Assembly (NCBI RefSeq): GCF_900187645.1
Contig: NZ_FYEE01000008.1
Span: 1-64,000 of the forward strand
Reading direction: 5' to 3'
Origin: Pseudomonas sp. Irchel 3E20
GTDB taxonomy: Bacteria > Pseudomonadota > Gammaproteobacteria > Pseudomonadales > Pseudomonadaceae
DNA length: 64,000 bases
The translations under genes were made by a program, and so were the position numbers. The notes beneath the pieces are model-generated. The model worked only from the letters and a program-made list of their open reading frames with translations. It was not told where the DNA came from and ran no database searches. Positions 1,370 through 30,076 of this stretch are shown piece by piece (position 1 is the first letter of the stretch; the number at the start of each line of letters is the position of its first letter).

Positions 1370-4307
1370 CCTGACCCAGATGATCCTGATTAGCGCCGCG
1401 TACCTGGCGGTGCTTTTCGGCGTGGCCTGGATCAGCGAACGCGGCATGATCCCGCGCTCGATCATCCGCCACCCGCTGACCTACACCCTGTCGCTGGGGG
1501 TTTACGCCAGTGCCTGGGCGTTCTACGGCACGGTGGGGCTGGCCTACCAGTACGGCTATGGCTTCCTGTCCAGTTACCTGGGGGTGTCGGGGGCGTTTTT
1601 GCTGGCGCCGGTGCTGCTGTACCCGATCCTGAAAATCACCCGCACCTATCAGTTGTCGTCGTTGGCCGACCTGTTCGCGTTCCGCTTTCGCAGCACCTGG
1701 GCCGGGGCGCTGACCACCCTCATCATGCTCATTGGCGTGCTGCCGCTGTTGGCCTTGCAGATCCAGGCCGTGGCCGACTCCATCGGCATCCTCACCCGCG
1801 AGCCGGTGCAACACCGCGTGGCCCTGAGCTTTTGCGCGCTGATTATTTTGTTCACGATTTTCTTCGGCTCGCGGCACATCGCCACCCGGGAAAAACACGA
1901 AGGCCTGGTGTTCGCGATTGCCTTTGAGTCGGTCATCAAGTTGATCGCCATCGGCGGCGTCGGCCTCTATGCCCTGTACGGCGTGTTCGACGGCCCGCAG
2001 CAACTGGAGCTGTGGCTGCTGCAAAACCAGACCGCCCTCGCCGCCCTGCACACGCCGTTGCAGGAAGGCCCGTGGCGCACCTTGCTGCTGGTGTTTTTCG
2101 CCTCGGCCATCGTGATGCCGCACATGTACCACATGACCTTCACCGAGAACCTCAACCCCCGTTCGCTGGTGAGCGCAAGCTGGGGCCTGCCGCTGTTTTT
2201 GCTGCTGATGAGCCTGGCGGTGCCGCTGATCCTGTGGGCGGGGCTGAAGCTGGGGGCCACCACCAACCCGGAATACTTCACCTTAGGAATAGGCATCGCC
2301 GCCAACAGCAAGGCCCTGGCCCTGCTGGCCTACATCGGCGGGCTGTCGGCGGCCAGCGGCCTGATTATCGTCACCACCCTGGCGCTGTCGGGCATGGCCC
2401 TCAACCACCTGGTGCTGCCGCTGTACCAGCCGCCCGCCGAGGGCAATATCTACCGCTGGCTGAAGTGGACGCGCCGGGCGCTGATCGTCGCGATCATCAT
2501 GGCCGGCTACGGCTTCTACCTGATGCTGGGCGCCGAGCAAGACCTAGCCAACCTGGGCATCGTCGCCTTCGTCGCCACCTTGCAGTTCCTGCCGGGGGTG
2601 TTGTCGGTGCTGTACTGGCCCACCGCCAACCGCCGCGGTTTCATCGCCGGGCTCCTGGCCGGGACGCTGGTGTGGATGGTGACCATGCTGCTGCCGCTGA
2701 TCGGCAACTTGCAGGGCTTCTATATACCCATCCTGAACATGATCTACGTGCTGGACGACACCAGTTGGCATATGGCGGCCATCGCGTCCCTGGCGGCCAA
2801 CGTGCTGATGTTCACCCTGATCTCCCTGTTCACCAACGCCAGCGCCGAAGAGGCCAGCGCCGCCGAAGCCTGCGCGGTGGACAACGTGCGCCGCCCGCAA
2901 CGGCGCGAATTGCACGCCGCCTCGCCTCAGGAATTCGCCACCCAACTGGCCAAGCCGTTGGGCGCCAAGGCCGCGCAAAAGGAAGTCGAGCAAGCGCTGC
3001 GCGACCTCTACCTGCCCTTCGACGAGCGCCGCCCCTATGCACTGCGGCGCCTGCGCGACCGCATCGAGGCCAACCTGTCCGGGTTGATGGGGCCAAGCGT
3101 GGCCCAGGACATGGTCGAAACCTTCCTGCCGTACAAGGCCGGCGGCGAAAACTACGTCACTGAAGACATCCACTTCATCGAAAGCCGTTTAGAGGACTAC
3201 CACTCGCGCCTCACCGGCCTGGCCGCCGAACTCGATGCCCTGCGCCGCTATCACCGCCAGACCCTGCAAGAGCTGCCCATGGGCGTCTGCTCCCTGGCCA
3301 AGGACCAGGAAATCCTCATGTGGAACAAAGCCATGGAAGAGCTGACCGGCATCGCCGCCCAGCGCGTGGTGGGTTCGCGCCTGAGTACCCTGAGCGACCC
3401 GTGGCGGCAATTGCTGCAAGGTTTCATCGACCTGCCCGACGAGCACTTGCACAAGCAACACCTGGCCCTCGACGGCCAAACCCGTTGGCTGAACCTGCAC
3501 AAAGCCGCCATCGACGAGCCCCTGGCGCCGGGCAACAGCGGCCTGGTGCTACTGGTCGAAGACCTCACCGACACGCAGATGCTCGAAGACAAACTGGTGC
3601 ACTCCGAACGCCTGGCCAGCATCGGCCGGCTCGCGGCGGGGGTGGCCCACGAAATCGGCAACCCGATCACCGGCATCGCCTGCCTGGCGCAGAACCTGCG
3701 CGAAGAACGCGAGGACGACAGCGAGCTGACGGAAATCAGCGGGCAGATCCTCGAACAGACCAAGCGCGTCTCGCGCATCGTGCAGTCGCTGATGAGCTTT
3801 GCCCACGCCGGTGGCCACCAGCACAGCGACGAACCGGTGTGCCTGGCCGAAGTGGCCCAAGACGCCATTGGCCTGCTGGCCCTGAACCGGCGCAATTTCG
3901 AAGTGCAGTTCTACAACCTGTGCGACCCCGAGCATTGGGTCTGCGGCGACCCGCAACGCCTGGCCCAGGTGCTTATCAACCTGCTGTCCAACGCCCGCGA
4001 CGCCTCGCAACCGGGCAATGCCGTGCGGGTCAAGAGCGAAGCCAGCGAGCACACGGTCGACCTGATCGTGGAAGACGAAGGCAGCGGTATTCCCAAGAAC
4101 ATCGTCGACCGTTTGTTCGAACCCTTCTTTACCACCAAGGATCCTGGCGAGGGCACCGGTCTGGGCCTTGCTCTGGTCTATTCAATCGTTGAAGAGCATT
4201 ATGGACAAATCACCATCGACAGCCCGGCTGACCTTGAAAGCCAACGCGGCACCCGTATTCGGGTAACCCTGCCACGTCATGTCGAAGCGACGTCCGCTGT
4301 GAACTGA
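1353..4307 (+). CDS. cbrA: Two-component sensor histidine kinase CbrA (SLC5 transporter-kinase fusion)
   Basis: Membrane sensor kinase that phosphorylates CbrB and controls carbon/nitrogen balance and catabolite repression. The 984-residue protein starts with an SLC5 (sodium-solute symporter) domain of about 13 membrane helices (about residues 1-500). A soluble linker resembling the STAC region follows, then a PAS domain around 625-740. The HisKA H-box is [11 protein letters not shown] with the phospho-acceptor at about His766. The C-terminus holds a HATPase with N box (LLSNARDA), DEGSGIP and [13 protein letters not shown]. The ATG at 1353 overlaps cbrX; an ATG two codons later (1359) is an alternative. 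cbrB follows after 22 bases. Histidine uptake through the SLC5 domain is known in P. fluorescens relatives. Confidence 0.97.
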
Positions 4308-5763: not shown

Positions 5764-5835
5764 TCGGCGTCGCCAGGGGCGTGCGTTACAGGTAACGATG
5801 TGAAAAAACTGTTACCCGTTAACTTTCACGTAACA

Positions 5836-5873
5836 AAAACCGGGGCTTACGGTAACGAAGCCCCGGTTTTTTT
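5836..5873 (+). terminator. Rho-independent terminator of cbrAB
   Basis: A GC-rich stem (AAAACCGGGGCTT pairing with AAGCCCCGGTTTT) around the loop ACGGTAACG is followed by a run of T. It lies 73 bases after the cbrB stop and before the crcZ promoter, so it separates the two transcripts. Confidence 0.9.
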
Positions 5874-18082: not shown

Positions 18083-18222
18083 TGTAGTTGTAGCAAGCGG
18101 GCTCGCCCGCGCTGGAGTGTGTAGCGCTCCTGAATCGGTACTCAATGAGCGCCGATTACGACAGCGTCGCGGGCGAGCCCGCTTACTACACGATCACTCT
18201 CGCGGGCAAGCCCACTCCCACT
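18083..18222. repeat. REP cluster between the small membrane protein and the macroglobulin gene
   Basis: Three related units: 18083-18113 (TGTAGTTGTAGCAAGCGGGCTCGCCCGCGC), 18163-18190 (inverted, ending GAGCCCGCTTACTACA) and 18196-18222 (TCTCGCGGGCAAGCCCACTCCCACT). The first two form an inverted pair with AGCAAGCGGGCTCG-type arms that differ from the CTCGCTCCCACAG subtype elsewhere in the window. Confidence 0.82.
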
Positions 18223-27343: not shown

Positions 27344-29257
27344 TCAAGACGACAGGTACGACGAACGCGTCAGACCCAGGCGCAACGCATCCAGGTATTG
27401 GGTGCGTTCGGCGGCCGTGATCTTGGCGCTGGCCACTTTGTCGCGATAGTGGGTCATCAACTCCTCGGGCGACAAATGCACATAGCGCAGCATGTCCTCG
27501 ATGGTGTCGTGGGTCTCGATGCCGGCGTGGTACACCGTGCCGTTGGGGTTCTGGTAGATGTTCACCGAGTCGGTGTCACCGAACAGGTTGTGCATGTCGC
27601 CGAGGATTTCCTGGTAAGCGCCCACCAGGAAGATGCCCAGCAGATAATCCTCGCCTTCGTTCAAGCCATGGACCGGCAGGCTGGTCTCGATGCTCTGCTC
27701 ATCGACGTACTGCTTGATCTTGCCGTCGGAGTCGCAGGTCAGGTCTTGCAGCACCGCGCGGCGCAGCGGCTCTTCATCGAGGCGGTGTAGCGGCAGGATC
27801 GGCAGCACCTGGCCAATGGCCCAGGTGTCGGGCAGGCTCTGGAACACCGAGAAGTTGCAGATGTACTTGTCGGCTAACTTGTCGTTGAGTTCGTCCAGCA
27901 CCTGGCGGTGGGAGCGTTGGCGGGCCTTGAGGGAGTTGTGCAGGCGCCGGCACACGGCGAAGTAGCACTGCTCGGCCAAGGCTTTTTCGGCCAGGGTCAA
28001 CTTGCCATCGGCGTACTGGGCGGCCACATCGCTCATGTAGTGGGTGGCGCGCCAGTAGGTTTCGGTGACCATCTCAATGTCGGTCGGGCCCAAAAGGTCC
28101 ACCAGCCATTGCACGGTTTCCGGCAGGTTTTCCTTGTTCTCGATCACCGGCACGTCGTCGTTGTGTTTCTCGACATCGGTGACCTGCACCACCAGCATGG
28201 CGTGGTGCGCGGTCAGGGAACGGCCGCTCTCGGAGAAGATGTTGGGGTGCGGCAGGTTCTGCGCGTCGCAGAACTCCTTGAGCATGCCGACCACGACACC
28301 GGCGTAGTCGTCCATGTCGTAGTTGATCGAACTGGCGTTGCGCGAATGAGTGCCGTCGTAGTCCACGCCCAGACCACCACCGACGTCGATGTGATCGACC
28401 GGCAGGCCCAGGTTGCGCAACTCGCCGTAGTAGCGGATAGCTTCCTTGAAGCCGTGCTGGTAGTCCGCCAGGTTGGCGATCTGCGAACCCATGTGAAAGT
28501 GCAGCAGGCGGATGCCTTGGTCCAGGCCCGCGTCGCGGAAACGCTCGACCACCGACAGCAGTTGCGCGGCCGACAAGCCGAACTTGGATTTCTCACCGCC
28601 GGTGTCTGCCCACTTGCTCGACGCCAACGACGACAGACGCACCCGCAGGCCGACCTGAGGCTTGACCTTGAGGGCCTTGGCTTCTTCGATCACCAGTTCA
28701 ACTTCGGACTCTTTCTCGATCACGATGAACACGTTGTGACCCAGCTTCTGCCCCATCAGGGCCAGGCGAATGAACTCGCGGTCCTTGTAGCCGTTGCAAA
28801 CAATGGTGCCGCCCTTGGGCGCCAGGGCCAGCACCGCCAGCAGCTCCGGCTTGGAGCCGGCTTCCAGGCCGATGGACACGTCCTGGGTGGCGATGATGTT
28901 CTCGATCACCGCCTCTTGCTGGTTGACCTTGATCGGGTACAGCGCGGTGTATTTGCTCTGGTATTCCAGGCGCGCGATGTTGGCGTCGAAGGCGCCGGTC
29001 AGTTGGCGTACGCGGTCTTGCAGGATATCGGGGAAGCGCACCAGCAACGGCAGCGACAAACCGCTTTGGCGCAGTTGATCGACTTGCTCGTACAGATCGA
29101 TAGGCGAGCTGTTCGGGCCGTTCGGACGAACTTCGACGCGACCGGCGTCATTGATCGCGAAATATCCGGCCCCCCAATGGCGAATCCCGTAAACACTGCG
29201 GCTGTCCGCAACTGTCCATTGGCTGCCATCGTCTTTGCGTGTGCGTCGTACGGACAT
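27344..29257 (-). CDS. speA: Biosynthetic arginine decarboxylase
   Basis: Decarboxylates arginine to agmatine for putrescine and polyamine synthesis. The 637-residue length matches the family (about 630-660). The PLP-binding Lys is about Lys110 in [66 protein letters not shown] and [17 protein letters not shown] are diagnostic of the SpeA (fold III) type. The ATG at 29257 gives the usual N-terminus. Upstream, towards yciH, is a 223-base leader with a long inverted repeat (29393-29480). The gene order speA-yciH-NUDIX-DUF2333-gcbA is a conserved pseudomonad block. Confidence 0.96.
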
Positions 29258-29392
29258 CGAAGTCCCCTATAAATGAAGTCAAAGAGCACCGGCCCAATCA
29301 GAGGCTGGCGCAGTCTAGAGAATGAAAGTGACGGTTTGCCTGTAAGGGAGGTAGACCTCGCTGCCAGGACAGAGTTTAGAAACCAGTCAGAA

Positions 29393-29480
29393 CAGGCTCT
29401 GTGAAAACCATGGAGACGACGCCAAGCCCTGTAGGAAAACAGGACAAAGAGTCAAGCCGAGGTGGTTTTCACAGAGGCTG
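29393..29480. repeat. Long inverted repeat between yciH and speA
   Basis: Left arm 29393-29410 (CAGGCTCTGTGAAAACCA) and right arm 29463-29480 (TGGTTTTCACAGAGGCTG) pair at 17 of 18 positions around a 52-base loop. An inner hairpin CCTGT/ACAGG sits at 29428-29443. The right arm touches the yciH stop codon. It could be a terminator or leader structure for speA, or the remnant of a small mobile element; no target duplication was seen. Confidence 0.75.
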
Positions 29481-29852
29481 CTAGCCGCCGGACTTCTTCG
29501 CCTTGAAGCCGTGCTTGAGCAACTCGGCCAGCAGCAGTTCGACGTGATCGCCCTGGATCTCGATGACCCCGTCCTTCAACGCCCCGCCCGTGCCGCAGCG
29601 CTTTTTCAGGCTGGTGGCCAGGTCTTTGAGCGCGTCTTCGGCCAGCGGCACGCCGCTGATGGTGGTCACGGTCTTGCCGCCACGGCCCTTGCTTTCGCGG
29701 CGCACGCGGGCAATGCCGTCGCCGGCCGGGAGCAGGGTCTGTTTGCAGATACAGGCCGCCACGGGCTGGCTACAGTCCGGGCAGTGGCGACCTGCGTCGG
29801 TGGAAAATACCAAGCCACCGAGGGCGGCGAAGGATGCGGCTTTTTTGGCCAC
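29481..29852 (-). CDS. yciH: SUI1/eIF1-like translation factor YciH
   Basis: A 123-residue homologue of eukaryotic eIF1 (SUI1 fold), which in bacteria has been linked to start-codon fidelity. The start is a GTG at 29852 (first residues MAKKAASFAALGGLVFSTDAGRHCPDC), chosen because AAGAGGA lies six bases upstream; the longer open frame to 29891 lacks one. The N-terminal CPDC...CICK resembles a zinc-binding knuckle. The SUI1 part has KTVTTISGVPLAEDALKDLATSLKKRCGTGGALKDGVIEIQGDH. The gene is in a block with speA. Confidence 0.9.
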   Translation of the reverse strand: MAKKAASFAALGGLVFSTDAGRHCPDCSQPVAACICKQTLLPAGDGIARVRRESKGRGGKTVTTISGVPLAEDALKDLATSLKKRCGTGGALKDGVIEIQGDHVELLLAELLKHGFKAKKSGG

Positions 29853-30076
29853 CGGCAATCCTCTTGTGAGGACAAAGACTGGTCGAAGCACTTTGGCAAG
29901 GGCCCTCGACCGCGAAGCCCCACTCAGGCAGGGGCAGCGCTACTGAACCGGGCCAGGCCGGTGCAGCTTGAAAAGTCGCGCAGTGTAACGGCAAATTGCC
30001 TACTTGCTAAGAGCCAATTCGCGCAAATTTATGCGACTTTTGCGACTCGCTAAGCAGAGGGTCCGCGGGTGTCTGG

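What the first reader, a model, noticed from the sequence alone, without database searches (positions are those of the whole stretch)
29393..29480. 88-base structured element with 17/18 matching arms before speA
The arms CAGGCTCTGTGAAAACCA and TGGTTTTCACAGAGGCTG flank a 52-base loop containing its own hairpin (CCTGT/ACAGG). It starts right at the yciH stop and lies in the speA leader. It is too long for a simple terminator, so it could be a small non-autonomous mobile element or a polyamine-responsive leader.
Basis: partly seen in the sequence, partly recalled or inferred. Interest (0 to 1): 0.5.

Follow-up and report, generated by a model that had tools for sequence, protein, structure and literature searches.

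The report
Conserved RNA hairpin between yciH and speA
A single-copy, evolutionarily conserved RNA hairpin sits just after the yciH gene and just before the predicted promoter region of the polyamine gene speA in many Pseudomonas; it does not behave like a jumping element, and its exact job is still unknown.

Summary
The 88-base inverted repeat is real (17/18 arms, 52-base loop, inner hairpin) and begins right after the yciH TAG stop on the minus strand. It occurs once in its own genome. Relatives have it at the same yciH-speA site: 81 of 81 genomes with a strong model hit. In 144 of 144 pattern-positive genomes there is one copy. A REPIN of similar size in this window has 85 matching pieces, so the mobile-element reading fails.

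The outer stem is nearly invariant, with a conserved C.C mismatch. The inner hairpin changes sequence while keeping its pairs: 35 double-changed cells against 12.2 in shuffles. Read from yciH to speA, G.U cells outnumber A.C 124 to 8. This indicates a selected RNA structure on that strand.

The hairpin ends 15-16 nt before a conserved AAACTC-N16-TCTA promoter-like box, so it probably lies in the yciH 3' UTR rather than in the speA leader. My best guess is a hairpin that protects the yciH RNA end and marks the gene boundary; no U-tract follows it. A polyamine-responsive leader is unlikely but untested. Some relatives lack it, so it is dispensable. No Rfam family matched; no listed paper describes it.

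The parts
29393..29480 (-). whole hairpin element, read 29480 to 29393 on the minus strand
29463..29480 (-). 5' arm of outer stem (CAGCCTCTGTGAAAACCA), directly after the yciH TAG
   Evidence: 28 departures from consensus in 57 distinct elements
29393..29410 (-). 3' arm of outer stem (TGGTTTTCACAGAGCCTG), nearly invariant
   Evidence: 8 departures, 3 of them one-base deletions, in 57 distinct elements
29426..29445 (-). inner hairpin (GTCCTGT/ACAGGGC in this genome); the counterpart helix covaries in relatives
29481..29891 (-). yciH ORF (SUI1 family), upstream gene; start codon not settled; TAG stop goes with the hairpin in the loci compared
29372..29377 (-). AAACTC, conserved -35-like box of an ECF/AlgU-like promoter (prediction), 15 nt after the hairpin
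   Evidence: box pair in 108 of 110 loci
29352..29357 (-). GGTCTA, -10-like partner (AAACTC-N14-GGTCTA)
29310..29319 (-). TCTAGACTGC, second conserved -10-like motif about 50 nt before speA (prediction)
27344..29257 (-). speA, biosynthetic arginine decarboxylase, downstream gene

Best explanation
SHOWN (by comparison of sequences): the element is a single-copy structured RNA element, encoded on the yciH-speA strand, at one fixed site directly after the yciH stop codon in a large part of the genus Pseudomonas. It has a nearly invariant outer stem of 16-17 pairs with a conserved C.C mismatch, and an inner hairpin maintained by compensatory changes. INFERRED: it forms the 3' untranslated end of the yciH transcript. 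RNA polymerase leaving yciH transcribes it, the RNA folds into a long two-tier hairpin, and this blocks 3'-to-5' exonucleases and insulates the yciH message from the separately promoted speA message that starts downstream. Because the outer stem is fixed in sequence and not only in pairing, I infer that an unidentified protein or nuclease recognises it.
For: Fixed site: in 185 of 186 fetched copies the bases before the element read as the yciH end with TAG, and speA is found within 260 nt in 181; four loci end too early, and in L130 a repeat intervenes. Covariation of the inner helix: 35 double-changed cells against 12.2 +- 3.7 in shuffles, 0 of 500 as high; slid controls give at most 7. Strand: G.U 124 cells in 12 columns against A.C 8 cells in 5 columns, with 49 other non-pairs; two columns hold 95 of the G.U cells, but a third goes G-C 31, A-U 18, G-U 9 with no A.C. 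Inner loops beat shuffles as sense RNA (mean z -1.55) more than as antisense (-0.29); paired Wilcoxon on energies p 1.4e-4, rows related to each other. Outer stem: one C-G to U-A double change and three U-G intermediates. TAG stop in 63 of 63 positive and 0 of 47 negative loci; hairpin to AAACTC 15-16 nt in 63 of 63; box in 63 of 63 positive and 45 of 47 negative loci.
Against: No transcript data were available. No U-tract follows the stem (TTCTGACT here). In 15 of 57 elements the antisense loop folds better than the sense loop. The 3' arm is more conserved than pairing needs and lies a fixed 15-16 nt from the -35-like box, which would also fit a DNA-level role at the speA promoter. 47 of 110 loci lack it, and those that look like losses show no obvious replacement.
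Confidence: 0.5

Rival explanations
1. DNA operator: the 3' arm (with the 5' arm as an auxiliary site) is the binding site of a regulator acting on the speA promoter just downstream.
For: Near-invariant 3' arm; fixed 15-16 nt spacing to the AAACTC box in 63 of 63 loci; 20 contiguous invariant columns CATGGTTTTCACAGAGCCTG in 58 sequences.
Against: The two half-sites are unequally constrained (28 against 8 departures); the inner hairpin covaries and G.U outnumbers A.C, which DNA binding does not explain; the box is present without the hairpin in 45 of 47 negative loci.
Confidence: 0.2
2. 5' leader regulator of speA in read-through mRNA (for example polyamine- or arginine-responsive).
For: Lies between yciH and speA; structured and selected.
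Against: Ends upstream of two conserved promoter-like motifs; the same box is kept in 45 of 47 loci without the hairpin; no Rfam riboswitch or leader match.
Confidence: 0.1
3. Source of a trans-acting small RNA processed from the yciH 3' UTR, the invariant 3' arm being its functional part.
For: Sequence-invariant arm within a stable hairpin.
Against: No expression evidence; an invariant stem arm is buried by pairing; no such sRNA among the titles listed by searches.
Confidence: 0.1
4. Exapted relic of a miniature transposable element: the outer stem descends from terminal inverted repeats of the CAGACTGTGTGAAAAC family.
For: Arm CAGCCTCTGTGAAAAC matches that family's 16-base end at 14 of 16 positions with the same outer CAG/CTG ends; a shortened form in L256 ends TTTTCACAGAGTCTG.
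Against: No interior similarity seen; the model hits in G064, G123 and G181 have best E 0.003 to 0.04 per genome, drawn from 199 genomes, so chance is enough; no target-site duplication recognised by eye; with the pattern used the family is in 5 of 199 genomes.
Confidence: 0.1

Closest known systems
REPIN (paired REP sequences of Pseudomonas; PMC3116915, seen in the search listing)
   Same: Roughly 90-110 bp, two inverted arms with a loop, intergenic; one is in this window at about 18087-18190.
   Different: REPINs are multi-copy: 85 matching pieces of the window's REPIN in this genome, its own site and arms included, against one full-length place for this element; the arms are not alike.
P. 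fluorescens intergenic repeat families (PMC2718517, passages read)
   Same: Size range, inverted repeats, predicted stem-loops.
   Different: The table rows seen give 2 to 621 copies per genome where a family is present; this element has one. Their consensus sequences are in a supplement and were not compared.
3'-UTR stabilising or terminator hairpins (general knowledge)
   Same: Long hairpin directly after a stop codon, structure on the transcribed strand.
   Different: No U-tract; unusually fixed stem sequence; inner covarying hairpin.
speF polyamine leader of Salmonella (PMC6386406, start of abstract seen)
   Same: RNA control near a polyamine decarboxylase gene.
   Different: Here the hairpin lies upstream of the predicted promoter, and no Rfam match was found.

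Membership tests
REPIN / REP | many copies per genome | tested here: not met
   own genome: one place; the other five matches are its own two arms and three pieces of 14-19 bases; one copy in each of the 144 positive genomes of 398
REPIN / REP | GTAG- or CGTC-tagged palindrome (from the title of PMC3733652, listing) | tested here: not met
   arms CAGCCTCTG/CAGAGCCTG; the window's REPIN has GTAG/CTAC ends; compared by eye
MITE / non-autonomous mobile element | found at different sites in related genomes | tested here: not met
   81 of 81 genus genomes with a strong model hit have it at yciH-speA; three more of the 199 have only weak hits elsewhere
MITE / non-autonomous mobile element | target-site duplication | tested here: inconclusive
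   AGCCT(C/G)T is repeated in both arms, but it explains deletion as well as insertion (by eye)
Intrinsic terminator | GC-rich hairpin followed by a U-tract | tested here: not met
   sequence after the stem is TTCTGACT here and similar in relatives; the scan found none but only looks at loops of 3-8
Rfam RNA family | reaches a family's gathering score | tested here: not met
   one chance match, 14.4 bits against a gathering score of 70
Conserved structured RNA | covariation above shuffled and slid controls | tested here: met
   inner helix; the outer stem hardly varies and gives little information
Polyamine-responsive leader | speA expression changes with polyamines through the element | not testable with these tools
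   needs a reporter
3'-end protecting hairpin | yciH RNA 3' ends map to the hairpin base | not testable with these tools
   needs 3'-end sequencing

The most novel reading that the evidence does not exclude
A previously undescribed, genus-specific RNA element whose fixed-sequence outer stem is recognised by a dedicated RNA-binding protein or nuclease and which couples or insulates a SUI1-type translation factor gene (yciH) and polyamine synthesis (speA), possibly recruited from a miniature transposon end.
Probability: 0.2. Interest if true: 0.6.

Novelty: new member of a known kind. Interest (0 to 1): 0.35.

Why it matters
It adds a clear, testable conserved RNA element to plant-associated and soil Pseudomonas, next to a polyamine gene. 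The combination of an invariant stem and a covarying inner hairpin predicts a sequence-specific partner. Natural relatives without it give ready-made controls.

Tried and rejected
Tried without result: Rfam scan; phage and plasmid records (no match); viral contigs with the two-arm pattern (none); promoter/terminator scan (none, but it covers sigma-70 promoters and loops of 3-8 only). A short ORF starting at the ATG of CATGGTTTTC was considered and rejected by eye: some elements lose the ATG (L067, L075) or the frame (L043), and I saw no Shine-Dalgarno before it (sequences). Model hits away from yciH-speA in G064, G123 and G181, and the single other-genus hit G490 (no hairpin arms in the stretch printed), are at chance level; the former led to the MITE comparison, which stays unproven. 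Literature: none of the titles listed by searches describes this element (each list was cut at 6 to 20 papers, except 36 and 55, which were complete at 3 and 4); passages read in PMC2718517, PMC12152252 and PMC7641640; all other papers seen only in listings. The tree uses 465 columns, is rooted at the midpoint, and 47 of its 107 inner branches are drawn open (support under 80), so the number of losses is uncertain. Caution on arm counts: the 139-element set was collected with patterns that fix most arm positions; the 57-element set, from the leader similarity search, was cut out with a pattern that fixes TCTGTGAA and TTTCACAGAGCCTG, plus L064 added by hand.

Full report
What is there. On the minus strand the order is yciH (SUI1 family), the 88-base element, two promoter-like motifs, speA (arginine decarboxylase domains). 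Read in that direction the element is CAGCCTCTGTGAAAACCA, a 52-base loop, TGGTTTTCACAGAGCCTG, directly after the yciH TAG. The one mismatch in the arms is a C.C pair, kept in 56 of 57 distinct elements, U.C in the other.

Copy number and site. In the own genome the 88 bases occur once; the other five listed matches are its own two arms and three pieces of 14-19 bases. A pattern of both arms with a 31-61 base gap is present in 144 of 398 genus genomes and in each of them at exactly one place (the own element is missed because its gap is 62). A covariance model (R1) hit 84 of 199 genus genomes at E <= 1; for 81 of them the best place, compared by eye, lies inside the yciH-speA leader match, and the other three (G064, G123, G181) have weak hits elsewhere. 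In 145 genomes of the order only the own genome and one chance-level hit (G490, E 0.002) appeared. Viral contigs: 0. Phage and plasmid records: none. As a control, an inverted repeat of similar size at about 18087-18190 in the same window, a typical REPIN, has 85 matching pieces in the own genome at E <= 10, its own site and arms included. The element is therefore not a dispersed mobile repeat.

Conservation and structure. From 110 of the 132 leader-matching genomes (22 not fetched), 63 loci carry the element and 47 do not. A total of 186 copies was collected from all loci, with 139 distinct sequences; some loci come from the same genomes. In the 57-sequence alignment 13 of 16 predicted outer pairs never change. 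In 58 distinct elements of equal length, aligned without gaps, the inner helix shows 35 cells with both sides changed and the pair kept, against 12.2 +- 3.7 in shuffles, and slid controls reach 7 at most; the number of pairs with a double change, 5, is less striking (22 of 500 shuffles as high). Outer stem cells are 98.5% paired but nearly invariant and so uninformative. Five further 86-base elements (L013, L070, L073, L131, L242) do not fit this inner layout in register and were left out of that alignment; with them in, the counts are. The structure was drawn from these sequences themselves, and they are related, so the shuffle numbers are not strict probabilities.

Which strand and which molecule. 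In the 58 elements G.U cells outnumber A.C 124 to 8, in 12 against 5 columns, with 49 other non-pairs. Two columns hold 95 of the G.U cells; another column pair runs G-C 31, A-U 18, G-U 9 with no A.C. The inner loops fold more stably than shuffles as sense RNA (mean z -1.55) but hardly so as antisense (-0.29); loop by loop, sense is more stable in 42 and antisense in 15 of 57. A DNA cruciform or operator should not distinguish the strands. One element (L064) has a double change in the outer stem, C-G to U-A, and three others show the U-G intermediate. Against a pure pairing role, the 3' arm is more fixed than the 5' arm: 8 departures (3 of them one-base deletions) against 28 in 57 elements, and 10 against 54 in the pattern-collected 139. 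So the sequence of that arm matters too.

Relation to speA. AAACTC-N14-GGTC[T/C] is found in 63 of 63 positive and 45 of 47 negative loci, and the hairpin ends 15-16 nt before it in all 63. This resembles the AlgU consensus GAACTT-N16/17-TCTNN quoted in PMC7641640 (passage): AAACTC-N16-TCTA matches 4 of 6 bases of the -35 box. It is a prediction only. A second -10-like motif, found with a loose pattern in 104 of 110 loci, lies about 50 nt before speA. If either is the start region, the hairpin is outside the speA leader.

Gain and loss. All 63 positive loci end yciH with TAG; the 47 negative ones use TGA (46) or TAA (1). In one group of negatives the remaining sequence AGCCTCTTCC looks like a deletion between the AGCCT(C/G)T repeats that both arms carry because of the C.C mismatch. 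In L090, grouped with positives, the last yciH codon GGC runs straight into TGAACGG, which in its relatives follows the element. The tree needs at least four changes, and its well-supported branches force three. With midpoint rooting its first split separates 16 negatives from the rest, so the element probably arose inside the genus and was lost more than once; weak branches prevent a firmer statement. The 67 of 199 genus genomes without a leader match were not read at the locus; the model search put no strong element in any of them.

Origin. The arms match the ends of a rare 140-base Pseudomonas repeat at 14 of 16 positions. Without interior similarity, and with chance-level model scores, this is only a lead.

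Function. Best guess (0.5): a 3'-UTR hairpin that protects the yciH RNA end and separates it from speA, with sequence-specific recognition. The structure, strand, site and single copy are shown by comparison; transcription of the hairpin, the protective role and a partner are inferred. Nothing here tests polyamines.

Noticed in passing
window 18087-18190: REPIN-like palindrome pair (GTAGCAAGCGGGCTCGCCCGCG ... CGCGGGCGAGCCCGCTTACTAC) with 85 matching pieces in the own genome, self included.
   Followed up: partly
window 5835-5871: Another perfect 14-bp inverted repeat with a short spacer.
   Followed up: no
L130, about 1800-1960 (minus strand): In P. gingeri A8002 a repeat of about 150 bases lies between the hairpin and the AAACTC box, its core shared with a multi-copy Pseudomonas repeat.
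   Followed up: partly
L269-L281: A 140-base repeat with 16-base ends like CAGACTGTGTGAAAAC, 1 to 6 copies in 5 of 199 genus genomes (G022, G050, G061, G123, G126).
   Followed up: partly
L079 (G176): Tandem duplication of the yciH end and the start of the leader in a locus that lacks the hairpin.
   Followed up: no
window 29352-29377: AAACTC-N14-GGTCTA box upstream of speA, conserved in 108 of 110 loci; AlgU/ECF-like promoter by prediction; the titles listed by one search did not show AlgU control of speA.
   Followed up: partly
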